This document shows positions 6,618-48,453 of a DNA stretch of 64,000 nucleotides, piece by piece. Both the position numbers and the translations under genes were made by a program. The number at the start of each line of letters is the position of its first letter. Within the stretch, counting starts at the first letter, position 1. Source of the DNA: Candidatus Scalindua sp. (lineage in GTDB: Bacteria; Planctomycetota; Brocadiia; Brocadiales; Scalinduaceae); assembly GCA_021776915.1 (NCBI GenBank), contig JAIQZU010000084.1, positions 147,709 through 211,708 of the forward strand, written 5' to 3'. The notes under the pieces were generated by a model that was not told where the DNA came from, did no database searches, and saw nothing but the letters and a program-made list of their open reading frames with translations.

Positions 6618-7937
6618 TCATGAGGTTTTGCACTCCTTTTTTCCCCAAAACTGTTCGGACACTGTTAGATCTCTTGGTATATCGATCTCAGTCCAATTTC
6701 CCTTAATTTGCACAAGATCTACTGAATATCCTCTATTTATTATCTCTTGTAACATATCTGTTAAATAAGCTTTTTTAAAGGATTTCGCAGTATGGAAGGC
6801 TTGACCTGGATTCTCATAATAATATTGCAATAAGTCATTAAAAACATCTTTAAGTATTTCAGCTCCTTTCCTACTAAAATATGCAACTCCCAGAAATTCA
6901 CCAAAAGCATTTTTGGAATCTGCATCTTTTCTGATTAACGTTACAGTCTTCCTGTTTTCAGAGAATACCAGTTCTGCTTCTGATATCGGATGATCAACTC
7001 TATCTTCGTAATATTCAAGCCAGTTACAATCAACCGCTATTGCAATATCCGAATTTGTTTCGAGCATTTGACGAATAATAACTTCATCATAGATTATATC
7101 TGAGTATGAAAACAGAAATCCGGAATTCATAGCTTCTTCAGCGTAAAAAAGGGAATGGAGAATATTGTTATTCTCGTAATCAGGATTAACGTAACATTGA
7201 TACCGGTCATCATTAAAATACTCTTTCTTATAACCAACTACTATATTAATGCCTGTAATCCCGCAATTTAGAAGATTATCAATCAACCTGTCTAGTATTG
7301 TTTTTCCATTAACATTCAACATGCATTTTGGTTTTTCTTTCTTAAAATGATTCATGCGATTTCCCATTCCTGCTGCAACAATTATTGCGTTTAAAGGTTT
7401 TCTGCCCAAAAATCTGACGACTTCGCCTAATAATAATCTCTGACACTCCTCAATTGTTAAGGATTTCGTATTAATTACTAACTCTGGCGAATCCGATGTT
7501 TCATAAGATTCAGTAACACCTATAAAGTTTTCATACTCCCCATTCAGAGCCTTCTGATAATGGCCTTTGTAATCTCTCTCGATACATACTTCTAAAGGAC
7601 AGTTCAGGAAAACTTCCATAAAATTGGTTATTGTATCTCTTGCCTTTTGCCTTATGTCTCTCTTATGGGATATTGCAGTAACGATAACAATAATTCCATT
7701 TTCATTGTACTTACTAGCCATCTGTATAGTTTTTCCCAGTATTGCATTCCGCTCATCAGTCATATATCCATGGGTTTCTCCTAACTCTTCCCTGATAGCT
7801 TCTCCATCCAACAACTTAACATTATTTACACCAATTGCTTTCAAATCATTAAAAAGTTTTCCCCCTAACGTACTTTTTCCCGATGCGCTTACCCCTGTAA
7901 TCCAAATAGTCCCGGAAATTAATTCCTGATTTCTCAT
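6618..7937 (-). CDS. APS-kinase-like / nucleotidyltransferase fusion enzyme
   Basis: About 439 residues from ATG at 7935-7937; an in-frame TTG at 7946 overlapping the previous stop is less likely. The N-terminal 185 residues are a CysC-like P-loop kinase (GVSASGKST, LLDGEAIREELG, IERDYKGHYQKA). The rest is a MobA/LicC-like nucleotidyltransferase (AAGMGNRM, EKPKCML, FSYSDIIYD, YLTDMLQ). The same two folds occur as separate genes at 41967 and 46821, where they resemble the Campylobacter cytidine diphosphoramidate kinase and CTP:phosphoglutamine cytidylyltransferase. By analogy with PAPS synthase, I infer that it makes a CDP- or CMP-activated headgroup and phosphorylates the 3'-position. The substrate is unknown; the neighbouring reductase suggests a phosphonate-like compound. 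Confidence 0.8.
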   Translation of the reverse strand: MRNQELISGTIWITGVSASGKSTLGGKLFNDLKAIGVNNVKLLDGEAIREELGETHGYMTDERNAILGKTIQMASKYNENGIIVIVTAISHKRDIRQKARDTITNFMEVFLNCPLEVCIERDYKGHYQKALNGEYENFIGVTESYETSDSPELVINTKSLTIEECQRLLLGEVVRFLGRKPLNAIIVAAGMGNRMNHFKKEKPKCMLNVNGKTILDRLIDNLLNCGITGINIVVGYKKEYFNDDRYQCYVNPDYENNNILHSLFYAEEAMNSGFLFSYSDIIYDEVIIRQMLETNSDIAIAVDCNWLEYYEDRVDHPISEAELVFSENRKTVTLIRKDADSKNAFGEFLGVAYFSRKGAEILKDVFNDLLQYYYENPGQAFHTAKSFKKAYLTDMLQEIINRGYSVDLVQIKGNWTEIDIPRDLTVSEQFWGKKECKTS

Positions 7938-7942
7938 TATAT

Positions 7943-8752
7943 TCAAACCTTGATCTCCACTATATCCTTAACACCATGATAATTCAATGAATCCATAATA
8001 TGCTTATTAAGTATCTGTATTAAACCATGCTTTATGCCAGGCTCCGCTGTTGCGAAGACATTCTCTCGCTCTCCCGGATCTACCTCTAAATCGTATAACT
8101 CAAACTTCTCTTCATTCCTTGAAAAGTTTTTAAAAGATGTGCCGTTAAATCTGGTACGATAAATAAAGGTATTTCTTTTATTCCTGATAGAAACAGAATA
8201 GCGATCTATATACAAGTCTTCACTGATCACAACATCTTTGTGACTTGCAGGTTCATCTGTATTATTCAACAGGGTTTTTCCGTTGACCATGCATCCGGAC
8301 TGCAGGTTCAACATATCCAGTATAGTTGGCAGAATATCTATATTTGCCTCTACAAGTCCATGGTCTACACCTTGTCTATTAAGGCTCCTGGGAAACTTAA
8401 TTGCCATGCCTACATTAACAGATTCCTGATAAAGGTCAAATACATCAATAGGATTATGTTCATTAAAATTGCTTCCATGGTCTCCCATAATAACTACCAG
8501 GGAGTCATCATATACATTTCTATCCTTGAGATACGCCAGAAACTGGTCTATTTGATACATACAGTAATCAAGCTCAGCCCTATAAAGATCTTTAAAAAAT
8601 GTGATCTGATCCTTATCGAAATCAAGTGCACCCTTAATACTCCTATATTCCTTTACATCCCGGAAAACTTCTTTTTTAGAAACCCTGCTGTAAGCCCATT
8701 CAAAATCTCTGGGCGGCTAATATCTCCAATGTGTCCCTATAATAGATGCAGG
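7943..8752 (-). pseudogene. Truncated sulfatase-fold gene (C-terminal remnant)
   Basis: The frame encodes a sequence clearly paralogous to residues 461-731 of the complete sulfatase-fold gene at 11131-13326 (for example PPRDFEW, GALDF, FFKDLYRAE, GDHGSNF). The N-terminal membrane region and the catalytic Thr region are missing. A stop codon sits where the intact copy reads FHPPRDFEW (HWRY, stop, PPRDFEW), and a 2-base insertion shifts the frame just upstream of it. The longest intact ATG-started piece is 7943-8560 (205 residues). It is joined at 8752/8753 to a truncated GT2 gene, so a deletion has fused two genes. It cannot be catalytic. Confidence 0.8.
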
Positions 8753-11130: not shown

Positions 11131-13326
11131 TCACTCGTGTATTTCAAATTTCGGATTTAACCCGTAATGGACTAAAGAATTTCTTACATGTGTATTCAGT
11201 AATGCAAAAAATTCATTTTTCACAGAAGAATTACCCTGAAAAAAGATGTTTTCTTTTTCTTGTGGATCATCCTCCCTATCATACAATTCAAAGGTTTCGC
11301 TGTTTCTTTCAAGCTTTGCAAAGGAGGGAGCCTTAAAATATGTCCTGTAAATAAATGTATACTTCTTATTTCTCAAGGCTATATAATACCTATTCACATA
11401 CAAATCTTCACTGATCACCACTTTTCCAAGACTATTCACCCATTTTTCTGTTATTTCATTCAGAAGGCTTCTTCCATTGAAAGGCCAATCTCCCTTCAAC
11501 GAAAGCATATCAACTATTGTGGGGGCTATATCAATGTTCGCACTCACCAGACCTGATTCTACCCCTTTCCTATTGAGAGCGAGTGGATACTTAGCCGTCA
11601 TGACTACATGTACAAATTCATCATATACGTCAAACGAACCGATTGTTATGTGTTCCCCGAAATTATTCCCGTGGTCTCCCATAAGCACAATAAGAGAGTC
11701 TTCGTACAAATCCCTGTCTTTCAGGTATGCAAGATATCTCTCAACTTCATACAAGCAACAGTCTATCTCTGCTCTATAAAGATCCTTAAAAAAAACGATC
11801 TGATCTTCATCAAAATCAAGAGCCCCTTTCTTCCCTCTGTGTTTCTTCACGTCCCTAATCACATCTATTTTCGATGTATGATTGTACATCCATTCAAAAT
11901 CCCTCGGTGGATGAAACGGCCAGTGTGCTTCCAGAAGATGCAGGTAATAGCACTGTCCGTTTCTGTATCCAGATTTTCGATCCTGTTGCCGTGCCCAGGA
12001 AAACACTTCTTCTGCTGTTGCTACACCATGTTCTTTATCACACATCTTATAGTAATATTTGTCAAATCCGCGAGAATACCCATAAATGGGAGATGTTCTT
12101 GGACCTGTACCATACCCAAAAGTAGTATACCCTTCTCGATGCAGGATTTCAGGGAGCAGGGTAATGTTCTCACTTATTGGTTTATATTCCCTTGGATGAT
12201 GCGTATCATGATAGGATAAATACTGTCCTGAAAGCAATGAGGCAAAGGTCGGTAGAGTCCAGGGGCCTTGGGTATATGCATTATCGTAAAGAACACTATC
12301 CTGTAAAAGCTGAGCAACGTGCATGTACCCACGTTCCTGTAGGACTGTTTGGGAGGGCAGATAATCTCTTCTCAGGCTGTCTATTACCAATATATAGATA
12401 TTACTTTTCCCCTGAGAGGAATGTGTTGCCGTAAACGGAAAACTTAGGTAAACAGACGAATCTTTCTTTGCACCTTCCAGAGTGTAGATAACTGAATCCG
12501 GATTTCCTTCTTGGGCAGAAGATGTTTCAATTAAGACATCGTTCCACACCCTGTCACGAAATTCAGTACTTGGTTCAAATACCTTATCAAACAACATACT
12601 TTTCTGTCCTGAGCACAAAGCTTTTTCTATCTTAAGCCGCATGGGAGAAGGGTTAATTGCCTTGGTACCAACCCCCAGACTGAGCACATCTGCTCCTTTA
12701 AGGTCAATTCGCACCGGTATCCCATTTTTCAATGCAAGACAGTTTCTTACCTCTCCAGAAATCTGAACCTTCTTCACGCTACAAGATGCAGCATCTTTAA
12801 TTGTAGAAATATCCACTGTTGCATCTACTGGAAGATCCACAACATAGGTTAAATCAGGCTGTTTCTTCTTCCAACGCCTTATTGTATAATCTGCAACGAA
12901 AATACCATTGAGAAAGAAAAATAAAATAGTAGATACTGATATCCCAAACGGTAAGAATCCAGATGCAACCACTGTTGATATAAAAAGCTGTAAAGAGGCA
13001 TCCCTTATACATACTCCATACTCAGTTCGGTACTTGCGAAAGTAGTAATCTGCCAACCCTTTCCAGCATGCAAAGATAGAAACAGAAGCTATCACAAAGG
13101 ATCCCACTGATATAAAGTAGGAGGGATGTATTATGGCACGCAGAAGAATGTATGCATAGACACAGAACAATGCATATGTAAGAATACAAATTGGGAAAAA
13201 CCATATCTTCTGCATTCTCTGCTCCTGCATCCCAATTCTGAGAAATCTCTCAAAGAAAATAATCAAACGCCCTGTTTTTTTCCATTGAGAAACATAAAAA
13301 CCAAAAACTTCAAAATAGTTATCCAT
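11131..13326 (-). CDS. Membrane-anchored sulfatase-fold protein with Thr at the nucleophile position
   Basis: 731 residues. Hydrophobic helices lie at about 41-65, 70-88 and 112-148, followed by a periplasmic region. The alkaline-phosphatase/sulfatase superfamily domain starts at about residue 308 (YILVIDSLRRDYL, D315 as metal ligand) and ends with the DHGNNFGEH block (D551, H552). Where sulfatases have C/S-x-P-S-R, this protein reads T357-L-P-T-F, so no formylglycine can form. A Thr nucleophile is known from phosphoethanolamine or phosphoglycerol transferases of the same superfamily. I therefore infer a phospho-group hydrolase or transferase acting on the exported glycan rather than a sulfatase. 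A truncated paralog lies at 7943-8752. Confidence 0.8.
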   Translation of the reverse strand: MDNYFEVFGFYVSQWKKTGRLIIFFERFLRIGMQEQRMQKIWFFPICILTYALFCVYAYILLRAIIHPSYFISVGSFVIASVSIFACWKGLADYYFRKYRTEYGVCIRDASLQLFISTVVASGFLPFGISVSTILFFFLNGIFVADYTIRRWKKKQPDLTYVVDLPVDATVDISTIKDAASCSVKKVQISGEVRNCLALKNGIPVRIDLKGADVLSLGVGTKAINPSPMRLKIEKALCSGQKSMLFDKVFEPSTEFRDRVWNDVLIETSSAQEGNPDSVIYTLEGAKKDSSVYLSFPFTATHSSQGKSNIYILVIDSLRRDYLPSQTVLQERGYMHVAQLLQDSVLYDNAYTQGPWTLPTFASLLSGQYLSYHDTHHPREYKPISENITLLPEILHREGYTTFGYGTGPRTSPIYGYSRGFDKYYYKMCDKEHGVATAEEVFSWARQQDRKSGYRNGQCYYLHLLEAHWPFHPPRDFEWMYNHTSKIDVIRDVKKHRGKKGALDFDEDQIVFFKDLYRAEIDCCLYEVERYLAYLKDRDLYEDSLIVLMGDHGNNFGEHITIGSFDVYDEFVHVVMTAKYPLALNRKGVESGLVSANIDIAPTIVDMLSLKGDWPFNGRSLLNEITEKWVNSLGKVVISEDLYVNRYYIALRNKKYTFIYRTYFKAPSFAKLERNSETFELYDREDDPQEKENIFFQGNSSVKNEFFALLNTHVRNSLVHYGLNPKFEIHE

Positions 13327-38977: not shown

Positions 38978-40840
38978 ATGATGAAGCTAGTAATTTTATC
39001 TAACTATGATCAATATAAAAAATTAGTTGAATATTGTCCAAACATTGAAGACATTCAGGTAGTTTGCGACAGTTTGTCATTTCAACATTTTCTGAAAAAG
39101 AAGAAGATTAATTTTTTGCTTCTAGAGGAGGGAATCTTAAAAGAAGATTGGAACAAGATAAATATCTGGGGTTGTGATAAAGCATTGAATTGGGGTGATT
39201 TTCTGAAGGAGCAATTGCTCTTTCAAGACATTGAACTCAATAATGCAATATACGTATTTTTTTCCTGTTTCCTGATTGAGTTCTTAAAAAACTATCTTTA
39301 TGTAAGATATATTTGTGAAAAATATAACCCGAAAGAGCTGATTGTTTTTGAGGGCTATAATTCAAAGTCATTCCCTGTCTCTAACGGTAACATTATTTTG
39401 AATACAATTTTACTAAAAATGAAAGATAAATATGAATATGATTTGCACGTCCTAGAGATTAAGAATAAAAAAAACAGGGACGAACAACAATCTATAAAGA
39501 ATAGAATCCGAAAACAACTTCAAAAATATTATTCATCTTTTCAAAACATAGAATGGTCAAGGGAGGCCTTCCTGGCCTGTGGATCATTAAGACATTTAGG
39601 GCTCGTATTGGAAGAAATAAAAAAAAGAGATTGTCACGTTTTTGTGTATGATTTCGAATTTCATTTAGAACAATATAAATTTTGCAGGAAGAATAAATTT
39701 AATTATATTCTTCCTGATTATTTTCTTTCTCAAGCTCCAAAAGACTCAGGTTTTGCTGAATATCAAGAAGATTTCATGAAATTGCTTGATACATTTGAGC
39801 ACGAGTCCTGGTTTGAGTATTATGGTGAAAATCTGAGTGTGATGATATGCGAGGCAATAAGAGATTCATATGAAAATTACATTAGTACAATTACATCCGA
39901 TACCGCAATTTATAAACAGATTCTGAATATATTAAAGATAAAGGCCTTAATAGTTGATGAAGATTGGGGTGTAAAACGCGGTTTCATGACTGCTTTCTTC
40001 AAGTCCAGAGGTATCAAGACATTTTGTATTTCGCATGGATACGGAGCTCAAAGGTTTTCTGTTGATATAGAGAAGAGAAACTTTTCCTTATCTGAAACCC
40101 TGGTTAATTCAAAATTTGAGAGATCATTATACGGTGCCAGAGGATGGGATGAAAAACATATACATGTTACAGGAATCCCAAAACATGATAATCTTGTCGA
40201 AAAGATTAAGAAAGGAAAAAAGAAGGGTAATAGGCCTGTCTTTTTCTTCTGTGGAACATCTTTACATGAATATGAACTTTCTCAAGCCTCGTATATTGGA
40301 TTAACTCAGTTTGAAAGGGGCATTTACATGAAAGAGCATCTGAGGCAGGTTATAAAGGCTATCAGTGAATATGATGTAAAACTCATGGTTCGTCCCCATC
40401 CTTCTGATATAGCAAGGTACATGGACGAAAAGCGGCTTTGGAAAGAAGAAATAAATCGTGCTGATAAAGGCAAAAGTGATATTGTCTTTTGTGATGAAAA
40501 GTATGATTTCTACGATATATTAAGTAATTGTGATGCAATGGTTATTGGTTATTGGACGCCAGCTATAGTTGAAGCATTAATTTCTGATGTTCCAACTTTG
40601 GTATTAAACTTTTCTGAACTCAAAGATGGGTTTCCTTTTGCTGAAGAAGGTTTATGTGAGGTTACCAGAGATATAACAGGACTTAGGGATTTTGTGAAAC
40701 GTATATGCGATAATTATCCTGACAATATGGTTTTTGGTAACAGGAATATAAGCCCGGAGCAAAAGTATTTTTATCTGGGGAGAAAGGATACAAAGAATAC
40801 CTTAAGAGCAGTGGATAAGATATTTGAAATAATGTCTTAG
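38978..40840 (+). CDS. GT-B-like transferase of the phosphoramidate locus, unknown specificity
   Basis: 620 residues, no membrane helix. The C-terminal half looks like the GT-B fold shared by CDP-glycerol glycerophosphotransferases and KDO-type transferases: ISHGYGAQRF near 350, VTGIPKHDN near 395, MVRPHPSD near 470, then CDAMVIGYWTPAIVEALISDVP. The N-terminal half is not recognised. It opens the plus-strand cluster that encodes the phosphoramidate-type enzymes, so it could transfer a sugar or a CDP-activated headgroup. The call rests on motif pattern only. The start is ATG at 38978; ATG at 38981 is equally possible. Confidence 0.6.
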   Translation: MMKLVILSNYDQYKKLVEYCPNIEDIQVVCDSLSFQHFLKKKKINFLLLEEGILKEDWNKINIWGCDKALNWGDFLKEQLLFQDIELNNAIYVFFSCFLIEFLKNYLYVRYICEKYNPKELIVFEGYNSKSFPVSNGNIILNTILLKMKDKYEYDLHVLEIKNKKNRDEQQSIKNRIRKQLQKYYSSFQNIEWSREAFLACGSLRHLGLVLEEIKKRDCHVFVYDFEFHLEQYKFCRKNKFNYILPDYFLSQAPKDSGFAEYQEDFMKLLDTFEHESWFEYYGENLSVMICEAIRDSYENYISTITSDTAIYKQILNILKIKALIVDEDWGVKRGFMTAFFKSRGIKTFCISHGYGAQRFSVDIEKRNFSLSETLVNSKFERSLYGARGWDEKHIHVTGIPKHDNLVEKIKKGKKKGNRPVFFFCGTSLHEYELSQASYIGLTQFERGIYMKEHLRQVIKAISEYDVKLMVRPHPSDIARYMDEKRLWKEEINRADKGKSDIVFCDEKYDFYDILSNCDAMVIGYWTPAIVEALISDVPTLVLNFSELKDGFPFAEEGLCEVTRDITGLRDFVKRICDNYPDNMVFGNRNISPEQKYFYLGRKDTKNTLRAVDKIFEIMS

Positions 40841-41083: not shown

Positions 41084-41905
41084 ATGAGAATTACTTATCG
41101 ACGGGAAAATAATAAGGAATACTGGGCTAAACGCTGGGATAACATTCCATCCGATTATTCTATGGAAAATCCAAATGTTTATCCTCTCAAATTTGCTCAG
41201 CTTACAGTTCAATCTAAAGAAGGAAAGATTCTGGAAGCCGGATGTGGAGCAGGACGTATACTTCGTTATTATGCAAACAAGGGGTATAATATTGTTGGAA
41301 TAGACTTTATTGGAAATACTGTTAAAAAACTGAAGAAAACAGACCAGACATTAAAGGTAGAAGCCGGAGATATAACTGATTTAACATACAATGACAAATC
41401 TTTTAAGTATGTATTGGCATTTGGATTGTATCATAATCTACATCATGATTTAGACAAGGCTATAAAAGAAACATATCGTGTTTTAGAAACAGGCGGAAAA
41501 GTTTGTGCATCCTTTCGGGCAGACAACCTCCAAACATCACTAACGGACTGGCTAATTGAACACAGAGCGCGCAAAGACGGGATAAACACTCATCCGGAAG
41601 AATTTCATAAAAGAAACCTTACACAATCTGAATTTGTCAGTTTATTTAAAGACGCAGGGTTTGAAGTAGAAGCGGTGTATCCTGTTGAAAATATGCCTAT
41701 TTTCTATAAATTCTCTTTCTTCAGGTCTAGAAAGCACAAAATTTTTAATGAACAGATAGGAAGAAAAGACGGCTATGAACTATCAACTTTAGGCAGTTTT
41801 ATCCAAAGAAATCTTATGAGATTTTTTCCAAGACAATTTTGCAATATCTTTGTCTTGATTGCACGTAAACCTGACACAATAAAACATGCAGCAAAGAAAT
41901 TCTGA
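41084..41905 (+). CDS. SAM-dependent methyltransferase of the phosphoramidate locus
   Basis: 273 residues. The class I methyltransferase core shows ILEAGCGAGRILRYY, VGIDFIG, VLAFGLYHNLHHDLDKA and TYRVLETGGKV. It lies 61 bases before the CDP-amidate-kinase-like gene. In the Campylobacter O-methyl phosphoramidate locus, two methyltransferases (Cj1419, Cj1420) accompany the core enzymes, so this one is a candidate to methylate the phosphoramidate group. That role is inferred from position only; sugar methylation is an alternative. Confidence 0.78.
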   Translation: MRITYRRENNKEYWAKRWDNIPSDYSMENPNVYPLKFAQLTVQSKEGKILEAGCGAGRILRYYANKGYNIVGIDFIGNTVKKLKKTDQTLKVEAGDITDLTYNDKSFKYVLAFGLYHNLHHDLDKAIKETYRVLETGGKVCASFRADNLQTSLTDWLIEHRARKDGINTHPEEFHKRNLTQSEFVSLFKDAGFEVEAVYPVENMPIFYKFSFFRSRKHKIFNEQIGRKDGYELSTLGSFIQRNLMRFFPRQFCNIFVLIARKPDTIKHAAKKF

Positions 41906-41966
41906 ACAGAGAGATACAAAATTTACAACAATTTTTAACTAAAGAAGAGGGGTAGGAGTTTAAATT

Positions 41967-42485
41967 ATGGTTTTATGGATTATAGGGATGTCTGGTTCAG
42001 GAAAAACTACTTTGGGCAAACATATATACAACAAACTTAAACCAGAGTGTAATAATCTGCTGTTTATGGACGGAGATATACTGAGGGAAATCATGGGTAA
42101 TGATCTAGGCCATACGCTAGAAGACAGGAAAAAGAATGCTGACCGTATCAACAGGCTTTGCAAATATCTTGATTCTAACGGAATAAATGTAATCTTTGCC
42201 TTACTATCCCTGTTTCATGATGCCCAAAAATGGATGAGGGATAATATAGATAATTATTACGAAGTTTATATCAATGCAGATCATAACAGTTTAATAATGA
42301 GAGACGCTAAAGGAATTTATAAAAAGGCGATGAACAGTGAAATAAATAATGTTGTAGGAGTAGATATTCCGTTTACACCTCCTCCGAACCCGGATATTAC
42401 AGTAAGAAATAATAATGGGCTAGAAGATTTATATAAGGAAGGTGATAAAATAATAGAATCTATCAGGCCGTTGTTAGGACAATAA
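41967..42485 (+). CDS. APS-kinase-like cytidine diphosphoramidate kinase candidate
   Basis: 172 residues, CysC fold. P-loop GMSGSGKTT (residues 7-15), MDGDILRE (D35-G-D37) and MRDAKGIYKKAM followed by VVGVDIPFTPPPNPD match the APS kinase family. No sulfate-activation genes are nearby. In C. jejuni the homologous Cj1415 phosphorylates the 3'-hydroxyl of cytidine diphosphoramidate, and the genes for the three preceding enzymes of that pathway lie just downstream here. A TAGGAG ribosome binding site precedes the ATG. True APS kinase activity is the alternative. Confidence 0.75.
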   Translation: MVLWIIGMSGSGKTTLGKHIYNKLKPECNNLLFMDGDILREIMGNDLGHTLEDRKKNADRINRLCKYLDSNGINVIFALLSLFHDAQKWMRDNIDNYYEVYINADHNSLIMRDAKGIYKKAMNSEINNVVGVDIPFTPPPNPDITVRNNNGLEDLYKEGDKIIESIRPLLGQ

Positions 42486-42486
42486 T

Positions 42487-43746
42487 ATGTATTTACTTAT
42501 TGAGATTGCAACTGTAATAATCATTCTGGAGTTGTTAATAATGTTTATTGTAAAGAACCTGAGAACACAGTTTCAGTGGCTTATTACAGCGGAAGATGAA
42601 CTGCCTGAGCTGGACCCGGATGGATTAAAAAAATTCATAAAACACGGATACGATCCTGAATTAGGATGGGTCAGGAAACCTGACACCCAACATCCGGAAA
42701 AAGGCAAGCACGGAGAAACGAGCTACCATATTGATAAAATCGGATCGAGGTGCAGTCCAGGGCACGAGCACCTTGAACCTCAGATATCCTGTTTTGGGGA
42801 TTCTTTTAGTTTTTGCAGACAGGTAAACGATAACGAAACATGGCAGTGGTATCTATCTGAAATATCCGGAGTTGGTGTATTAAACTTTGCAGTTGGCAAC
42901 TACGGCATTGATCAGGGATACCTTCGCATGGCAAGAGAAATAGACAAGGTAAAAACAGATATCGTCATCTTAGGAGTTGTGCCATCAACTATAGTGCGAA
43001 TATTATGTGTTTGGAAACATTATAATGAATTTGGAAATACATTTGGTTTTAAACCCAGGTTCGACATAAAAGATGGGAAACTGATCTTAATAAAAAATAT
43101 TATAGATAAAGAAAGTAAATTTAATGAATATGAGAACTATCTTGGCGACATCCAGGACAATGATTATTTTTATTTAACAAAATTTCGTGATGAAATGATC
43201 AGGTTTCCTTGCCTTTTTCACACCTTAAAGAAACCATCCAGAAATTTACCGTTGATAGGCATTTTACTTTTCTCCAAACTGTTTGACAAAGACGGTGTTA
43301 TGAATGAACGAATAAGGAATTACTGTCTTATGAAAATAATGAATATTAATAAAACTTTAAGATATAGATTATTTCAAGACAAATACGCAAAAGATATATT
43401 TCTGGGGATCATAGACAAATTTGTAGAACTCTCAAAGATGAAGAATTTCAAACCGGTATTCCTGTTTACACCCCAAAAAGATGACATTTTACTTATCAAG
43501 CAGAAAGGGAATTACTACAACCATCTTATCGAAAAAATAAAGGAAAAAGTATTTACCATTGATATAACTGAACAGTTATTGTCAGCCAAAAATCTTGATC
43601 GACTATATTCTGATGACAATGTTTATGGTGGGCATTACAGTAAAGAGGGTAATAAGCTGGTAGCGAATTTTATATACAACGCCTTCAGAGAAAACCAGTA
43701 TTTAAACCGGAAAATTGAAGAAGGGGCAAATCTCAATAAAATATAG
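42487..43746 (+). CDS. Membrane-anchored SGNH/GDSL-family protein
   Basis: 419 residues. An N-terminal hydrophobic helix (about residues 3-22) is followed by an SGNH domain: block I CFGDSFSF (D105-S106), block III-like VGNYGIDQGY, and a C-terminal D377-N-V-Y-G-G-H383 catalytic-type motif. Such proteins are esterases or acyltransferases of surface glycans. It begins one base after the kinase stop and lies between two steps of the phosphoramidate pathway. It therefore probably belongs to the pathway, perhaps in transfer or acylation at the membrane. The Campylobacter locus has no recognised counterpart. Confidence 0.75.
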   Translation: MYLLIEIATVIIILELLIMFIVKNLRTQFQWLITAEDELPELDPDGLKKFIKHGYDPELGWVRKPDTQHPEKGKHGETSYHIDKIGSRCSPGHEHLEPQISCFGDSFSFCRQVNDNETWQWYLSEISGVGVLNFAVGNYGIDQGYLRMAREIDKVKTDIVILGVVPSTIVRILCVWKHYNEFGNTFGFKPRFDIKDGKLILIKNIIDKESKFNEYENYLGDIQDNDYFYLTKFRDEMIRFPCLFHTLKKPSRNLPLIGILLFSKLFDKDGVMNERIRNYCLMKIMNINKTLRYRLFQDKYAKDIFLGIIDKFVELSKMKNFKPVFLFTPQKDDILLIKQKGNYYNHLIEKIKEKVFTIDITEQLLSAKNLDRLYSDDNVYGGHYSKEGNKLVANFIYNAFRENQYLNRKIEEGANLNKI

Positions 43747-43758
43747 AAAGCAATTATC

Positions 43759-46161
43759 ATGAAAAAAAATATGTCAAAGGCTGATATATTGATGGAGCTT
43801 AAACTCAGGTTAAAAAGCTCCTATGTCGAGGATATTCATGTCTTTACTGTAGAGGATTGGAGAAAAAGACGCGTAGAGTTGTTGGAAATATTGGTAAGTT
43901 CTTTTTCTCCTTTACCGGTAGTTGTCAGGAGCTCTTCTCAGAATGAAGACACTGAAAAATATTCTCAGGCAGGATGCTTTCACAGCGAAATCGGCATTAA
44001 TTCTACTGACTCAGGAGAACTTTCGAATGCTATAGAAAAGGTCATAAGCTCATACAATGATAAAGATGCAGTGTCTATGAATGATCAGGTTATAGTTCAA
44101 ACCCAAACACAATCTGTAGATACAAGCGGGGTAGTTTTTACAAGAACTCTTGGGGCGAATTCCCCATATTACGTTATTAATTACGATGATGTTTCCGGCA
44201 AAACAAATACTGTAACTGGTGGTATTGCCAGCTCTATGGTATGTATTTTTCGTAAATCACCTGTTTCTTCAGCAGGCAGGTGGAGCAAACTCTTGGAAGC
44301 CGTTAAAGAAATTGAAGGTCATTTTCCGGATATTCCTCTTGATATTGAATTTGCCCTGACTACTGACGATAAAGTTGTAATGTTTCAAACCAGACCTCTT
44401 TCTGCAAATATTGGTGTGAAAAAACCTGATGAAAAGCAAGTTAGTATCCTTATCGAAAGTATGAAGACAAAGTTTTTACGGGTTTCACGGCTAATACCAC
44501 ACCTGGGAGGGGAAAGGACCATCTTTGGAGATATGCCAGATTGGAATCCGGCAGAGATGATAGGAAGTCGGCCTAATACTTTGGATTATTCCTTGTATAG
44601 TTTTCTTATCACTGATTCTGTCTGGCATGAAGCAAGGTCTACGCTGGGATACAAGGATGTTTATCCAGGAGAGCTGATGATTTCCTTCGGCAAAAGACCG
44701 TACATTGATACCAGAGTGAGTTTCAATTCGCTTGTGCCAGAAGATGTTTCCGAAGAATTGTGTAACAAACTAGTAAATTACTATCTGGATGAGCTGGAAA
44801 AACATCCCGAGAAGCAGGATAAGATTGAGTTTGAAATTGTCTGGTCATGTTTCACTTTCTCACTGGATAACCAACTGACAAATCTAACAAAGAAGGAATT
44901 CTCAAATGAAGAAATAAGTGAATTGAGAACATCTTTATTAAATTTTACTAACACAATAATAGAGGATGCCAACAATCTCTTTAAAAGAGACGTAGGTCTC
45001 GTTTCATATCTGACAGAACGGAAGAAAAAGATCTTATCTCATAGAGACCCTGATGATCTTTCACCGTGGACGTTATTTAACATAGCTTATAATTTGCTGC
45101 AGAATTGCAAGAAATTCGGCATACTACCTTTTTCCAGACTTGCAAGAATGGCATTTATTGGTAAAAGTATATTGATAAGCCTTAGAGATGAAGGGATTAT
45201 ATCAAATACCACATATCACAATTTTTTAAATTCAATTCAAACTGTAGCATCTGTGTTTAGTAAAGATTTAAGAAAATTCCAAACCGGAGAAAAAACCAAG
45301 CAAGAGTTCTTTGATTCATACGGGCACTTAAGGCCTGGAACATATGATATAACTGCTTTAAGATATTGTGATATGGATAAAAATATTTTTATGCAAAATA
45401 ATCCACATCAGAAGGGATCTGGTATCCATGAGAAAGAGTGTAAAATTTCACAGGAGGAAACGAGCGCTATAGACAAGATTATGCGTAAAAACAAGCTATC
45501 AGGAAACAGTAAAACCTTATTAGATTTTATTGCAAGGACAATTGAATATAGAGAAGTTGCGAAGCTTGAGTTTACCCGCACACTCAGTGAAGCTCTTGAA
45601 TTTATCTCTTTAGCAGGTGAGAAACTGGGTTTCTCCAGAGATGATCTTAGCCAGGTTGACTTAACTACCTTAATGAAATTCCGTAATCCTGAATATTCGG
45701 ATGTCGAATATTCAAAAGATGTCATCAGGCAGTCAATTGAAAGACACAGGAAAGAGAGAAAATGGTCTGATTTCCTTATACTCCCTCCAGTAATAATAAA
45801 TGAAAAAGATTTTGAGATTGTATCGTTTTACAAAGCAAGACCTAATTTTATCACCGAGAAAATGGTCCAGGGACCAGTTCTTGAATACGACAGGGATAAA
45901 TTTTTTAAAATAGAAGATATGAGTAAATTCATCATCTTCTTAGAAAATGCAGACCCCGGATATGACTGGATTTTTACACGAAATCCTATGGGAATAGTTA
46001 CGAAATATGGTGGAGTTGCTTCACATATGGCCATCCGGTGTGCGGAGTTTGGGATTCCGGCTGCAATAGGATGTGAATCAACTATTTACAATAATCTGGT
46101 TAAATCAAATTTTGTTGTTATTGATGGAGCAAAACAAACATTAGAACATTTAGAGGGGTAG
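43759..46161 (+). CDS. PEP-synthase-like L-glutamine kinase candidate
   Basis: 800 residues. The N-terminal ATP-grasp domain of the PEP synthase/pyruvate-phosphate dikinase family is clear (PVVVRSSSQNEDTE, VVFTRTLG, DIEFALTTDDKVVMFQTRPL). A long middle part follows, and a C-terminal phosphohistidine swivel domain with GGVASHMAIRCAEFGIPAAIG, H756 being the transferred-phosphate residue. The PEP/pyruvate-binding barrel is absent, so it is not a PEP synthase. This architecture and the neighbours match C. jejuni Cj1418, which phosphorylates the amide nitrogen of L-glutamine. Rifampicin-phosphotransferase-type enzymes share the layout and are the alternative. Confidence 0.75.
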   Translation: MKKNMSKADILMELKLRLKSSYVEDIHVFTVEDWRKRRVELLEILVSSFSPLPVVVRSSSQNEDTEKYSQAGCFHSEIGINSTDSGELSNAIEKVISSYNDKDAVSMNDQVIVQTQTQSVDTSGVVFTRTLGANSPYYVINYDDVSGKTNTVTGGIASSMVCIFRKSPVSSAGRWSKLLEAVKEIEGHFPDIPLDIEFALTTDDKVVMFQTRPLSANIGVKKPDEKQVSILIESMKTKFLRVSRLIPHLGGERTIFGDMPDWNPAEMIGSRPNTLDYSLYSFLITDSVWHEARSTLGYKDVYPGELMISFGKRPYIDTRVSFNSLVPEDVSEELCNKLVNYYLDELEKHPEKQDKIEFEIVWSCFTFSLDNQLTNLTKKEFSNEEISELRTSLLNFTNTIIEDANNLFKRDVGLVSYLTERKKKILSHRDPDDLSPWTLFNIAYNLLQNCKKFGILPFSRLARMAFIGKSILISLRDEGIISNTTYHNFLNSIQTVASVFSKDLRKFQTGEKTKQEFFDSYGHLRPGTYDITALRYCDMDKNIFMQNNPHQKGSGIHEKECKISQEETSAIDKIMRKNKLSGNSKTLLDFIARTIEYREVAKLEFTRTLSEALEFISLAGEKLGFSRDDLSQVDLTTLMKFRNPEYSDVEYSKDVIRQSIERHRKERKWSDFLILPPVIINEKDFEIVSFYKARPNFITEKMVQGPVLEYDRDKFFKIEDMSKFIIFLENADPGYDWIFTRNPMGIVTKYGGVASHMAIRCAEFGIPAAIGCESTIYNNLVKSNFVVIDGAKQTLEHLEG

Positions 46162-46164
46162 AAA

Positions 46165-46824
46165 GTGTTGTTTGCCATTTCCTGCAATATAAAAAGATAT
46201 CATAATAGTCCTGGAGACTTCTTATACAGTGACTATATACAGTTTTTTGAGGAAAAAGGTATAAATATCCTACCTGTTTCAAATGCATCAAAAAGCATAG
46301 AGTTTTGTTTCAATAGATCTAAGATTGAAGGACTTATTCTCTCAGGAGGCAATGATTTGGGAAGTGAGCCAGTTAGAGATTCACAGGAAGAACTGCTTTT
46401 AAGCCTTGCAATAGAACTCAAGCTCCCTGTTCTTGGTATCTGTAGGGGAATGCAGTTTATAAATTATTATTTTGGCGGAGGATTTCCTATAGATATTGCA
46501 ACAACTGATAAAAACATTGAAGACCATGTTGTATCCAGCCATGAGATAAAGATTGTAGATTCAAAATGGAAAGATTTGATTGGTAAGGATAGAGTAAATA
46601 CAAATTCTTTTCACAGGCAGGGTTTAAATATGGATCAAATATCTAAAGAACTCGAAGTATTAGCAATATCTGAAAGTAGTGGGTTAGTTGAAGCTTTGTG
46701 TCATAAGGAATATCCTATTGTTGGTATTCAGTGGCATCCAGAAAGAAAAAGTCCGGATAACCAGGTAAATGATATAATACTGAAATCATTAAAATATCAG
46801 ACATGTTACTGGAGTGCAAAATGA
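46165..46824 (+). CDS. Class I amidotransferase-fold hydrolase, gamma-glutamyl-CDP-amidate hydrolase candidate
   Basis: 219 residues from GTG at 46165. Catalytic C93 is in LGICRGMQF and the H191/E193 pair in WHPERK; LILSGGNDLG forms the oxyanion region. It belongs to the PuuD-like (gamma-glutamyl) branch. In C. jejuni Cj1417 cleaves CDP-glutamine to glutamate and cytidine diphosphoramidate, and the order kinase/hydrolase/cytidylyltransferase around it fits. It starts 4 bases after the glutamine-kinase candidate and its stop overlaps the next ATG (ATGA). A PuuD role in putrescine breakdown is the alternative. Confidence 0.77.
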   Translation: MLFAISCNIKRYHNSPGDFLYSDYIQFFEEKGINILPVSNASKSIEFCFNRSKIEGLILSGGNDLGSEPVRDSQEELLLSLAIELKLPVLGICRGMQFINYYFGGGFPIDIATTDKNIEDHVVSSHEIKIVDSKWKDLIGKDRVNTNSFHRQGLNMDQISKELEVLAISESSGLVEALCHKEYPIVGIQWHPERKSPDNQVNDIILKSLKYQTCYWSAK

Positions 46825-47609
46825 AAGCCATAATTTTAGCTGCTGGAAAAGGAACACGTATGGGTGATCTCACAAAGGAAAAACCTAAATGTACATTAAG
46901 TTTCAGAGGAAAGACTTTGATTGAAAGACAGATAAAGACAATAAAAGGAGCAGGTATAGACGATATTATAATAGTTGTGGGATATATGCCTGATAAAATA
47001 GAATGCCCCGGATGTATAAAGATTGAAAACAAGGACTATGACAAAACCAATATGATAGAATCGCTATTTTGTACCAGAAATCATTGGGATGATGGAATTA
47101 TAGTCTCTTATGGAGACATTATATACGAGGTAAAAGTACTGAAGCAATTAATGGATTCGAATAATGCTATAAATGTAGTTGTTGACCTGAATGGAGCTTC
47201 ATATTTTAAAGACCGTTTTGGTGACGATTTTCTTTCAGAAACAGAATCATTGATTATGGATAAAAAAAGGTACATCGTAGATATCGGAGAATCCAATCCA
47301 GAAATCTCCAGGATTCAGGGACAATACATCGGCCTTATGAAATTTAATAAAGAAGGGCTGGATACAGTTTCAAAGGTGTACGATAGAGACAAGAAAGATT
47401 ATTGGAACAAACCATGGTTAAGATCACAGAACTTTCAGAATGGTTATATGACTGATATGCTACAAAGAATGATTGATCTTGGTAATAGAGTAAAAGCGGT
47501 TTGTGTTACAGGCGGATGGTTGGAATTTGATACTGACAAGGATTATTACAAATATTTATCCTGGGACGAGCAAAAGAAACTTAATAAATATTATACACCT
47601 GACGAATAA
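46821..47609 (+). CDS. Nucleotidyltransferase, CTP:phosphoglutamine cytidylyltransferase candidate
   Basis: 262 residues from ATG at 46821, with GGAG at 46811-46814; an in-frame upstream start at 46803 is less likely. The MobA/LicC-like signature AAGKGTRMG (residues 7-15), EKPKC and VSYGDIIYE (D99, metal ligand) are present, with GYMTDMLQRM near the C-terminus. The C-terminal halves of this protein and of the fusion at 6618-7937 align well (TDMLQ, then W-x-E-x-D). By family and location it matches C. jejuni Cj1416, which joins CMP from CTP to phosphoglutamine. A phosphocholine or phosphonate cytidylyltransferase is the alternative. Confidence 0.76.
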   Translation: MKAIILAAGKGTRMGDLTKEKPKCTLSFRGKTLIERQIKTIKGAGIDDIIIVVGYMPDKIECPGCIKIENKDYDKTNMIESLFCTRNHWDDGIIVSYGDIIYEVKVLKQLMDSNNAINVVVDLNGASYFKDRFGDDFLSETESLIMDKKRYIVDIGESNPEISRIQGQYIGLMKFNKEGLDTVSKVYDRDKKDYWNKPWLRSQNFQNGYMTDMLQRMIDLGNRVKAVCVTGGWLEFDTDKDYYKYLSWDEQKKLNKYYTPDE

Positions 47610-47625
47610 TAATTGGAGAAATTAT

Positions 47626-48453
47626 ATGGTATCAATTCAAGAATTAAAGAAGATATGCCAGGAAATAAGACGGGAAACCGACGACTGGTACATGTGGCAC
47701 GTTCTGAGGAAAATATCAATACGTGTTACATGGTTATTACTGCACACTCCAATAAATGCAAACGGAGTAACATTCTTATTTATTATTAATGGCATACTTA
47801 TATGCATAATCTTCATTTTTGGTACAAAATTGGCGCTCTTTATCGGATCTCTCATGCTACAGTTCTGGTTTGTCCTGGATATGGTAGACGGAGAAATCGC
47901 ACGGTATAGGAAACAATCAGTTGCAACCGGAAGATTTTTTGATTACATGGCCCACTATATAGTCCATCCGTTTTTCTTTATTTCGATAGGGTACGGCCTT
48001 TCCAGTAAATATGAAGATTCCAGCATCTTTCTTTATTCAATTCTTGCGGGATATTCAGTTCATCTGGTAGATGTACTTTTAGATGTTTCTTACAGCGTTT
48101 TGTACAGAAGGGTAAAGAGTAAATTACTGAATCCTGACAAGGAAATTGTTTTCAAACGATTGGACAATAACAGCGTGGGTAATGGCAGTGGCAAGAATAG
48201 CTCTGTGCAGAAGAAGGTATTCAGTTTCATGCACAGGGTTTCTACATTTCCACCGATAATACATATTATGCTATGTCTTTCAATTGTTAATCTGTTTGTA
48301 AAGACTGAATTATTCTTTTACTGGGTCTATTTCTATGCGTTTACCGCCACATTAGTCTGGGTCTCCAGGGTTGCCGCGGTCATAATGAAGAAGAAGATAG
48401 ATATTGAATACACACAAATGGATAATATCTTGAGTTCATGGAGAAATAAGTAA
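47626..48453 (+). CDS. CDP-alcohol phosphatidyltransferase homolog with altered motif
   Basis: 275 residues from ATG at 47626 (GGAGA at 47615-47619); a longer frame from 47503 overlaps the previous gene and is rejected. It has about six membrane helices. The family motif D-x2-DG-x2-AR-x8-G-x3-D-x3-D reads D85, D88-G89, A92-R93, G102, D106, but the last Asp is His110 (FFDYMAH). Family members transfer a phospho-alcohol from a CDP donor to an acceptor, releasing CMP. Directly after the cytidylyltransferase, it could use a CDP-activated headgroup made by this cluster. The His substitution may mark a subfamily with a different substrate. Confidence 0.75.
   Translation: MVSIQELKKICQEIRRETDDWYMWHVLRKISIRVTWLLLHTPINANGVTFLFIINGILICIIFIFGTKLALFIGSLMLQFWFVLDMVDGEIARYRKQSVATGRFFDYMAHYIVHPFFFISIGYGLSSKYEDSSIFLYSILAGYSVHLVDVLLDVSYSVLYRRVKSKLLNPDKEIVFKRLDNNSVGNGSGKNSSVQKKVFSFMHRVSTFPPIIHIMLCLSIVNLFVKTELFFYWVYFYAFTATLVWVSRVAAVIMKKKIDIEYTQMDNILSSWRNK

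What the first reader, a model, noticed from the sequence alone, without database searches (positions are those of the whole stretch)
41084..48453. A phosphoramidate (MeOPN-like) headgroup pathway outside Campylobacter
Four adjacent or near-adjacent genes carry exactly the four folds of the C. jejuni Cj1415-Cj1418 pathway: APS-kinase-like kinase (41967), PEP-synthase-like enzyme lacking the PEP barrel but with swivel His756 (43759), PuuD-like hydrolase with C93/H191/E193 (46165), and MobA/LicC-like nucleotidyltransferase (46821). In Campylobacter these make phosphoglutamine, CDP-glutamine, CDP-amidate and its 3'-phosphate in turn. A methyltransferase lies upstream. That no sulfate, gluconeogenic or putrescine genes accompany them makes the alternatives less likely. 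If right, this organism decorates its surface glycan or lipid with a phosphoramidate, with extra genes (SGNH, CDP-alcohol transferase) not in the known locus.
Basis: partly seen in the sequence, partly recalled or inferred. Interest (0 to 1): 0.95.

Follow-up and report, generated by a model that had tools for sequence, protein, structure and literature searches.

The report
Phosphoramidate sugar-tag operon outside Campylobacter
An uncultured bacterium (likely Omnitrophota) carries relatives of all four enzymes with which Campylobacter jejuni makes the activated form of a rare phosphorus-nitrogen tag for its surface sugars, and it likely makes the same compound; because most of this gene set recurs in dozens of distant bacteria and archaea, a chemistry described as Campylobacter-specific is probably widespread.

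Summary
Window 41084-48453 is a tight seven-gene run: methyltransferase, APS-kinase-like kinase, SGNH protein, PEP-synthase-like kinase, class-I amidohydrolase, MobA-like nucleotidyltransferase, CDP-alcohol-phosphotransferase-like protein. Both kinases pass the NCBIfam models to which a MeOPN-locus reference belongs; the hydrolase's best model is gamma-glutamyl-CDP-amidate hydrolase, but far below cut-off; catalytic residues are kept. The small kinase groups with kinases of other such loci and of Campylobacterales, apart from true APS kinases; the genome has its own CysD-CysNC elsewhere. Of 80 named loci with the large kinase, 61 (21 named phyla, 16 archaeal loci) also hold hydrolase and nucleotidyltransferase, 32 all four. 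A Campylobacter-type finish is not supported: the known MeOPN transferase family was not found in the window or the 80 loci, nor Cj1419/1420-type methyltransferases here. Instead an APSK-SGNH-methyltransferase module and a membrane CDP-alcohol-transferase-like protein accompany the core. In the nearest named relative the cassette lies among glycan genes, favouring surface-glycan decoration. Substrate, terminal transferase and product are inferred. New variant of a known kind.

The parts
38978..40840 (+). 620-aa protein, surface-glycan transferase-like by its place (inferred); upstream partner shared with L018
   Evidence: No Pfam match at 1e-3; 50% identical protein about 7 kb upstream of the kinase in L018; C-terminal half matches a ~600-aa family found near the kinase in four other loci (hhalign 97%)
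41084..41905 (+). SAM methyltransferase; candidate methylase of the phosphoramidate or of the glycan (inferred)
   Evidence: Methyltransf_11; same family (150 bits or more) in 9 of 80 kinase loci, 8 of these also with APSK, none with Cj1419/1420-type methyltransferases; 2 of 216 Omnitrophota genomes, both kinase genomes
41967..42485 (+). APS-kinase-like kinase, predicted CDP-amidate 3'-kinase (Cj1415-like)
   Evidence: NF004041 166.9 bits over cut-off 127, TIGR00455 (true APS kinase) 119.7 under 138.7; in the 38-row branch with Campylobacterales references
42487..43746 (+). SGNH-fold protein with one N-terminal hydrophobic helix; role unknown (esterase or transferase)
   Evidence: AF2 mean pLDDT 93; Foldseek CgnD, GDSL protein 4rsh, PatB; GDS Ser106 and His383 invariant in 51 rows; 10 of 80 kinase loci
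43759..46161 (+). PEP-synthase-like kinase without PEP barrel, predicted glutamine kinase (Cj1418-like)
   Evidence: NF004508 808.7 bits over 501 (reference 1096); 35% over 730 aa to reference; His756
46165..46824 (+). class-I amidohydrolase, predicted gamma-glutamyl-CDP-amidate hydrolase (Cj1417-like)
   Evidence: best NCBIfam NF045546 6e-25, 88.5 bits, under cut-off 250; C93/H191/E193
46821..47609 (+). MobA/LicC-like nucleotidyltransferase, predicted CTP:phosphoglutamine cytidylyltransferase (Cj1416-like)
   Evidence: NTP_transf_3; tree groups it with kinase-linked members; G15, G17, R19, K29, N76, D105 in 78 of 78 rows
47626..48453 (+). membrane CDP-alcohol-phosphotransferase-like protein with His in place of the fourth Asp; candidate terminal transferase (inferred)
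   Evidence: PF01066; His108 in 34 of 34 rows; fold nearest AF2299; directly after the nucleotidyltransferase also in L018
48543..49139 (+). DUF218 protein, 89 nt downstream; may or may not belong
   Evidence: PF02698

Best explanation
This operon encodes relatives of all four enzymes that make 3'-phospho-CDP-amidate in Campylobacter jejuni, and it likely makes the same activated phosphoramidate, which would then be placed on a surface glycan. Predicted steps: 43759 phosphorylates the amide of L-glutamine; 46821 joins the product to CMP from CTP; 46165 removes glutamate, leaving CDP-amidate; 41967 phosphorylates its 3'-hydroxyl. The order and chemistry are those reported for the Campylobacter enzymes; for this organism each step is inferred from kinship, conserved residues and gene order. 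The end of the pathway differs: the Campylobacter transferase family was not found, and an APSK-SGNH-methyltransferase module plus a membrane CDP-alcohol-phosphotransferase-like protein stand in its place. I take the latter as the likeliest terminal transferase, because its fold family moves groups between CDP-linked donors and hydroxyls at the membrane (inferred, about 1 in 3), and 41084 as a likely methylase of the tag or of its sugar (inferred).
For: Family models. Small-kinase tree: 38 of 41 phosphoramidate-linked rows, window and 4 Campylobacterales references included, in one branch (SH-aLRT 96), with 25 true-type APS kinases outside. The genome's own CysNC shows the mirror image (TIGR00455 232 bits, met; NF004041 110.7, not met) beside a CysD over its cut-off. 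Core recurs: of 80 named loci with the large kinase, hydrolase in 66, nucleotidyltransferase in 69, both in 61, all four in 32, small kinase in 39; hydrolase directly downstream in 49 of 79 and hydrolase + nucleotidyltransferase as the next two in 35 of 79. 11 of 12 such genomes searched whole hold an NF045546 match at 1e-20 or better (12 of 12 at 1e-6, but at 1e-6 9 of 14 control genomes match too; at 1e-20 1 of 14). Reference L130 also holds NF058596, O-methyl phosphoramidate transferase, over its cut-off, so it is a MeOPN locus. Fusions of the large kinase with PF01467 and in two listed clusters with PF01583. Glycan setting of the cassette in L018. SGNH in 2 of 392 and kinase in 8 of 392 Omnitrophota genomes, both SGNH genomes among the 8. 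Pathway in C. jejuni: PMC11800397 (passages).
Against: The hydrolase misses the cut-off of NF045546 by far (88.5 of 250; also 0 of 12 genomes of other kinase loci pass). The nucleotidyltransferase scores higher with the APSK-NTP fusion of its own genome than with the reference. Three of 41 phosphoramidate-linked small kinases fall outside the main branch. 6 of 30 kinase positions read, mostly invariant among near relatives, differ in all six references (R129, N141, D258, N273, D276, C761). No relative of the MeOPN transferase by phmmer in 80 loci or 57 window ORFs. The window's relatives of L018's flanking glycan genes lie 26-40 kb away on the other strand. His at the fourth-Asp position is also seen in other CDP-alcohol-transferase-like proteins of the phylum not known to be linked to such loci, so it is no mark of this pathway. 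No biochemistry.
Confidence: 0.78

Rival explanations
1. The large kinase and hydrolase act on another amide or amine, so that the locus makes a different N-phosphoryl compound, or a soluble P-N metabolite, rather than a glycan tag.
For: Only 30-36% identity to the reference enzymes; 6 of 30 kinase positions read differ in all six references, e.g. D276 (Ala) and N273 (Lys); many loci carry other partners, e.g. a formyltransferase-like gene.
Against: Hydrolase and nucleotidyltransferase travel with the kinase in 61 of 80 loci, often in the same order, and the hydrolase's best model is the gamma-glutamyl one; glycan genes surround the cassette in L018.
Confidence: 0.14
2. The nucleotidyltransferase and the CDP-alcohol transferase form their own pair (as in the archaeal IPCT-DIPPS enzyme) that makes a CDP-alcohol and a phosphodiester headgroup; kinase and hydrolase serve something else.
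For: Adjacent genes in window and L018; weak match of both to NF041135, the fused inositol-phosphate enzyme; nearest folds AF2299 and IPCT-DIPPS.
Against: Nucleotidyltransferase and hydrolase are both present in 61 of 80 kinase loci, while a CDP-alcohol transferase at 45 bits or more is in 3 of 80; the four-Asp motif is not complete.
Confidence: 0.1
3. Four unrelated housekeeping enzymes (APS kinase, PEP synthase, gamma-glutamyl-GABA hydrolase, MobA-like) lie together by chance.
For: Each fold is common; generic Pfam names.
Against: Tree and family scores, recurrence of the set, separate CysD-CysNC.
Confidence: 0.02

Closest known systems
Campylobacter jejuni MeOPN capsule pathway (Cj1415-Cj1418, transferases Cj1421/Cj1422)
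   Same: Relatives of all four enzymes of CDP-amidate-3'-phosphate synthesis, in one operon; core order kinase-hydrolase-nucleotidyltransferase as in reference L130
   Different: Small kinase lies upstream beside SGNH and a different methyltransferase; no NF058596/DUF2972 transferase found and no Cj1419/1420-cluster methyltransferase; extra SGNH and CDP-alcohol-transferase-like genes
True sulfate-assimilation APS kinase (CysC/CysNC)
   Same: P-loop fold, PF01583
   Different: Misses TIGR00455 cut-off, separate branch; the genome has its own CysNC
PEP synthase / rifampin phosphotransferase
   Same: ATP-binding and swivelling-His domains; solved-structure matches named PEP synthase
   Different: No PEP barrel model; long region shared with the reference kinase but not with PpsA
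CDP-alcohol phosphotransferases (AF2299, IPCT-DIPPS, PIP synthase)
   Same: Fold, DxxDGxxAR...GxxxD
   Different: Fourth Asp replaced by His in 34 of 34 rows
SGNH/GDSL hydrolases (CgnD, PatB)
   Same: Fold, GDS serine and late His
   Different: Own family without Pfam match in the window protein, N-terminal helix; 10-14% identity in the seven best structure matches

Membership tests
C. jejuni CDP-amidate pathway (core) | glutamine-kinase-type protein (NF004508, to which the MeOPN-locus reference belongs) | tested here: met
   808.7 bits, cut-off 501; reference 1096. NCBI names the model 'hypothetical protein'
C. jejuni CDP-amidate pathway (core) | gamma-glutamyl-CDP-amidate hydrolase NF045546 at its cut-off | tested here: not met
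   best model, but 88.5 of 250 bits; reference 324.8. So not filed as this equivalog, only as likely to work like it
C. jejuni CDP-amidate pathway (core) | catalytic Cys-His-Glu of the hydrolase | tested here: met
   C93/H191/E193 in 77 of 77 rows; shared with class-I amidotransferases in general
C. jejuni CDP-amidate pathway (core) | Cj1415-type small kinase, not a true APS kinase | tested here: met
   NF004041 met, TIGR00455 not met; own CysNC the reverse; tree
C. jejuni CDP-amidate pathway (core) | Cj1416-type cytidylyltransferase | tested here: inconclusive
   No dedicated model seen; tree places it with kinase-linked members (support 89), BLAST prefers the own-genome fusion
C. jejuni CDP-amidate pathway (core) | ATP:glutamine N-phosphorylation and the later reactions | not testable with these tools
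   needs purified proteins
MeOPN decoration system | MeOPN transferase (NF058596, DUF2972) | tested here: not met
   phmmer with the reference transferase: 0 of 57 window ORFs, 0 of 80 loci; hhalign of 38978 to DUF2972 0.6%. The rest of the genome was not searched for it
MeOPN decoration system | Cj1419/Cj1420-type methyltransferases | tested here: not met
   window 41084 clusters apart from them; best window match 17.3 bits; no locus of 80 has both types
CDP-alcohol phosphotransferases | D-x2-D-G-x2-A-R-x8-G-x3-D-x3-D (motif recalled) | tested here: not met
   fourth Asp is His108
SGNH hydrolases | fold with GDS Ser and late His | tested here: met
   AF2 model and Foldseek; G104-D105-S106 and H383 invariant in 51 rows

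The most novel reading that the evidence does not exclude
Phosphoramidate surface chemistry is an old, widely shared trait of bacteria and archaea, built on one conserved kinase-hydrolase-cytidylyltransferase core with interchangeable finishing modules; in this lineage the finish is membrane-bound: the His-type CDP-alcohol-transferase-like protein, helped by the SGNH protein, moves NH2-PO2 from CDP-amidate or its 3'-phosphate to a lipid or lipid-linked glycan, giving a new class of phosphoramidate lipids or glycans.
Probability: 0.25. Interest if true: 0.92.

Novelty: new variant of a known kind. Interest (0 to 1): 0.78.

Why it matters
A 2022 review calls the glutamine kinase C. [quoted passage not shown] a 2019 review says the modification had so far been identified only in Campylobacter sp. 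(PMC6429109, passages). Here 61 named loci of 21 named phyla hold kinase, hydrolase and nucleotidyltransferase together, from a scan that kept the best 80 of 555 relatives. If the enzymes do what their relatives do, biological P-N bonds are far more common than thought, the tag may be a widespread recognition site for phages (shown for C. jejuni, PMC9561416), and the terminal transferases outside Campylobacter, none of them known to me, become a concrete search target (SGNH, CDP-alcohol-transferase-like, the f8/f5 pair).

Tried and rejected
Considered and rejected: sulfate assimilation (own CysD-CysNC elsewhere); PEP synthesis (no barrel model; only 81 aa match to PpsA); putrescine degradation (hydrolase outside PuuD in the tree, support moderate and branches long). 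The idea that His for the fourth Asp marks phosphoramidate loci was dropped: other CDP-alcohol-transferase-like proteins of the phylum show it (the regex of that script shifts in several rows, so its tallies by letter are unreliable and were not used as counts). The idea that 38978 is a distant DUF2972 transferase found no support (hhalign 0.6%). A link of the CDP-alcohol gene to the kinase by equal longest-contig lengths gave only 2 of 33 (shifted control mean 0.09, max 1; 3 of 33 with SGNH, no control run): suggestive only. Solved structures gave nothing useful for 38978. The phylum search for the CDP-alcohol gene found no second close member (605 bits, next 66). Papers: searches for phosphoramidate or the glutamine kinase in other organisms listed no title or abstract start that reports the pathway outside Campylobacterales; only listings were seen for most, passages for the papers named in the report, and the library holds open-licence papers only.


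Full report
WHAT IS THERE. The run 41084-48453 holds seven + strand genes with gaps of 61, 1, 12, 3, -4 and 16 nt: methyltransferase (MT), APS-kinase-like (APSK), SGNH, PEP-synthase-like kinase (KIN), class-I amidohydrolase (C26), MobA-like nucleotidyltransferase (NTP) and CDP-alcohol-transferase-like (CDPOH). A 620-aa protein lies just upstream. The genome is 3.8 Mb in 89 contigs; the best named relatives are Omnitrophota, so I call it likely Omnitrophota.

FAMILY TESTS. NCBIfam: KIN passes NF004508 (808.7, cut-off 501); APSK passes NF004041 (166.9, cut-off 127) and fails the APS-kinase model TIGR00455 (119.7, cut-off 138.7); C26 has NF045546, gamma-glutamyl-CDP-amidate hydrolase, as best model but at 88.5 of 250 bits. 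To learn what these models hold I looked for NF045546 in 298 genomes of the order of a Sulfuricurvum genome (Campylobacterales, recalled): 19 match at 1e-20, 11 over the cut-off; at that threshold 1 of 14 control genomes matches. Six of the 11 over-cut-off places were fetched (L128-L133), plus the Sulfuricurvum (L134) and a same-order relative of the window (L135). In L130 the same four genes lie with two methyltransferases, a Capsule_synth gene and a protein that passes NF058596, 'O-methyl phosphoramidate transferase' (750, cut-off 600); its KIN, C26 and APSK score 1096, 324.8 and 272 in the same models. It is therefore a MeOPN locus, though its species is not told.

IDENTITY. Against L130 the window proteins show 35% over 730 aa (KIN), 30% over 184 (C26), 34% over 252 (NTP) and 36% over 165 (APSK); each beats the E. 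coli relatives tried (PpsA 81 aa only; PuuD 58 against 80.5 bits; CysC 84 against 122; GlmU 40 against 128), but NTP scores higher (147 bits) with an APSK-NTP fusion of the same window.

TREES. APSK: 67 rows; 38 of 41 phosphoramidate-linked rows, including the window and 4 references, share a branch (SH-aLRT 96); L040, L023 and L181 fall outside; E. coli CysC, the genome's own CysNC and 23 kinases of relatives are all outside (quick method). C26: the 74 kinase-linked rows stay apart from PuuD, GuaA and TrpD (support 83 and 90, long branches, so moderate). NTP: the window joins 19 kinase-linked rows (89); the own-genome fusion falls in a neighbouring branch. No KIN tree was built; the pairwise result above stands for it.

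RESIDUES. Hydrolase triad C93, H191, E193: 77 of 77 rows, E. coli amidotransferases included. KIN position 756: His in all 88 kinase-type rows, in none of 8 PEP-synthase-type rows, whose alignment there is unsure. Of 30 kinase positions read, chosen mostly from those invariant among near relatives, 6 differ in all six references (R129, N141, D258, N273, D276, C761).

RECURRENCE. They fall in 22 named phyla, 9 loci without a named phylum. In the DNA held around them (up to 10 kb each side, score thresholds mine, several contigs short): C26 66, NTP 69, both 61, all four 32, APSK 39, SGNH 10, window-type MT 9, Cj1419/1420-type MT 21, DUF2972 transferase 0, CDPOH 3, all of 80. The 61 fall in 21 named phyla (43 bacterial, 16 archaeal, 2 without a named domain), the 32 in 13. 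C26 is the next gene in 49 of 79 and C26-NTP the next two in 35 of 79 (L045's kinase was not called as such). Of 12 such genomes searched whole, 12 have an NF045546 match at 1e-6 (where 9 of 14 control genomes match too), 11 at 1e-20, none over the cut-off. Public proteins fuse KIN with PF01467 (cytidylyltransferase-like, name recalled) and, in two listed clusters, PF01583. Three of the 120 listed relatives are already named glutamine kinase by JGI, so the assignment is not wholly unseen by pipelines.

SULFATE. The genome has five APS-kinase-type matches (window gene, the fusion, and three on contigs 22, 60 and 66) and two PAPS_reduct-family genes. The one on contig 66 is a 655-aa CysNC over its cut-off (NF004035 887.5; TIGR00455 232, met; NF004041 110.7, not met) beside a CysD over its cut-off, so 41967 is not needed for sulfate.

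THE OTHER GENES. SGNH: predicted with pLDDT 93; best folds CgnD (an SGNH-family leader peptidase of crocagin biosynthesis; PMC10885120, passage), 4rsh, PatB; Ser106 and His383 invariant in 51 rows. Relatives with two hydrophobic helices and basic residues after the second suggest a cytoplasmic domain (my reading, untested). It occurs in 2 of 392 Omnitrophota genomes (E 1e-20), both among the 8 of 392 with KIN (1e-40) (chance about 4 in 10,000 by hand, kinship ignored). Of 119 SGNH and 119 KIN relatives, 19 longest-contig lengths coincide (shifted control mean 0.33, max 3). In G436 APSK, SGNH and MT are three neighbours on another contig than KIN-C26-NTP, and the window-type MT (1e-30) is in 2 of 216 genomes, the same two. 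So APSK-SGNH-MT looks like a second module of the pathway; but only 2 of the 10 SGNH loci also hold APSK at my threshold, so in archaea SGNH goes mostly without it. The two MT types never share a locus (0 of 9 with 21 of 80; Fisher 0.10, not significant); the f8 family and the Cj-type MT also exclude each other (0 of 16; 0.008).

CDPOH. Relatives are few (33 proteins); all 34 rows have His at the fourth catalytic Asp; fold nearest AF2299 (pLDDT 90). The same change is seen in other CDP-alcohol-transferase-like proteins of the phylum. Among the loci mapped it follows NTP on the same strand in the window and L018 only. Its role as terminal transferase is a guess from chemistry.

SETTING. L018 (Omnitrophota, JADGBR010000002) has HisH-like, 620-aa, radical-SAM, flippase-like, sulfatase-like, MT, APSK, SGNH, KIN, C26, NTP, CDPOH, methyltransferase and glycosyltransferase genes in one run; the window's relatives of most non-core genes lie at 0.8-15 kb on the minus strand, in a cluster with glycosyltransferases, a flippase-like gene, HisH/HisF-like, asparagine-synthase-like and PF02348 cytidylyltransferase genes. 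This looks like a glycan locus, and it makes surface-glycan decoration the likeliest use.

KNOWN WORK. In C. jejuni Cj1415-Cj1418 make CDP-phosphoramidate 3'-phosphate from glutamine, ATP and CTP; it is called the likely donor; no function is assigned to Cj1419 and Cj1420 (PMC11800397, passages). The phosphoramidate also occurs without methyl, and the kinase is called C. jejuni-specific (PMC9561416, passages). Enterohepatic Helicobacter hold cj1419-1422 relatives (PMC6247508, passage). The listings show no title or abstract start that reports the pathway elsewhere; the library holds open-licence papers only. I recall, without a call, reports of phosphoramidate in Xanthomonas lipopolysaccharide.

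VERDICT. Core pathway: strong by kinship and context, unproven by assay. End of the pathway: different from Campylobacter and open.

Noticed in passing
window 6618-7946 (-): 442-aa fusion of APS_kinase (PF01583) and NTP_transf_3 in the glycan cluster; nearest own-genome relative of the window's NTP. May activate another alcohol or acid.
   Followed up: partly
P0049-P0119, L020-L030: Many large kinases of about 950-1140 aa, mostly from archaeal or unnamed sources, carry an extra PF01467 domain although a separate NTP gene lies nearby in the loci read; why two is unclear.
   Followed up: no
L081:15134-16449, L092, L040, L043 and others: A ~200-aa family without Pfam match and a formyltransferase-like gene often sit beside the small kinase; both present in 12 of 80 loci. 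Possibly another finishing module.
   Followed up: partly
window 11131-13326 (-) and 7943-8560 (-): Sulfatase-superfamily protein with N-terminal hydrophobic region and Thr at the likely nucleophile place; relatives lie near the kinase in several loci. Could be an extracytoplasmic phospho-group transferase.
   Followed up: partly
L193, L207, window 47626-48453: His instead of the fourth catalytic Asp in CDP-alcohol-transferase-like proteins of Omnitrophota, inside and outside phosphoramidate loci.
   Followed up: partly
L040:6331-8154: 607-aa protein with sulfatase-like and weak methyltransferase-like matches directly upstream of APSK in a Cohnella kinase locus.
   Followed up: no
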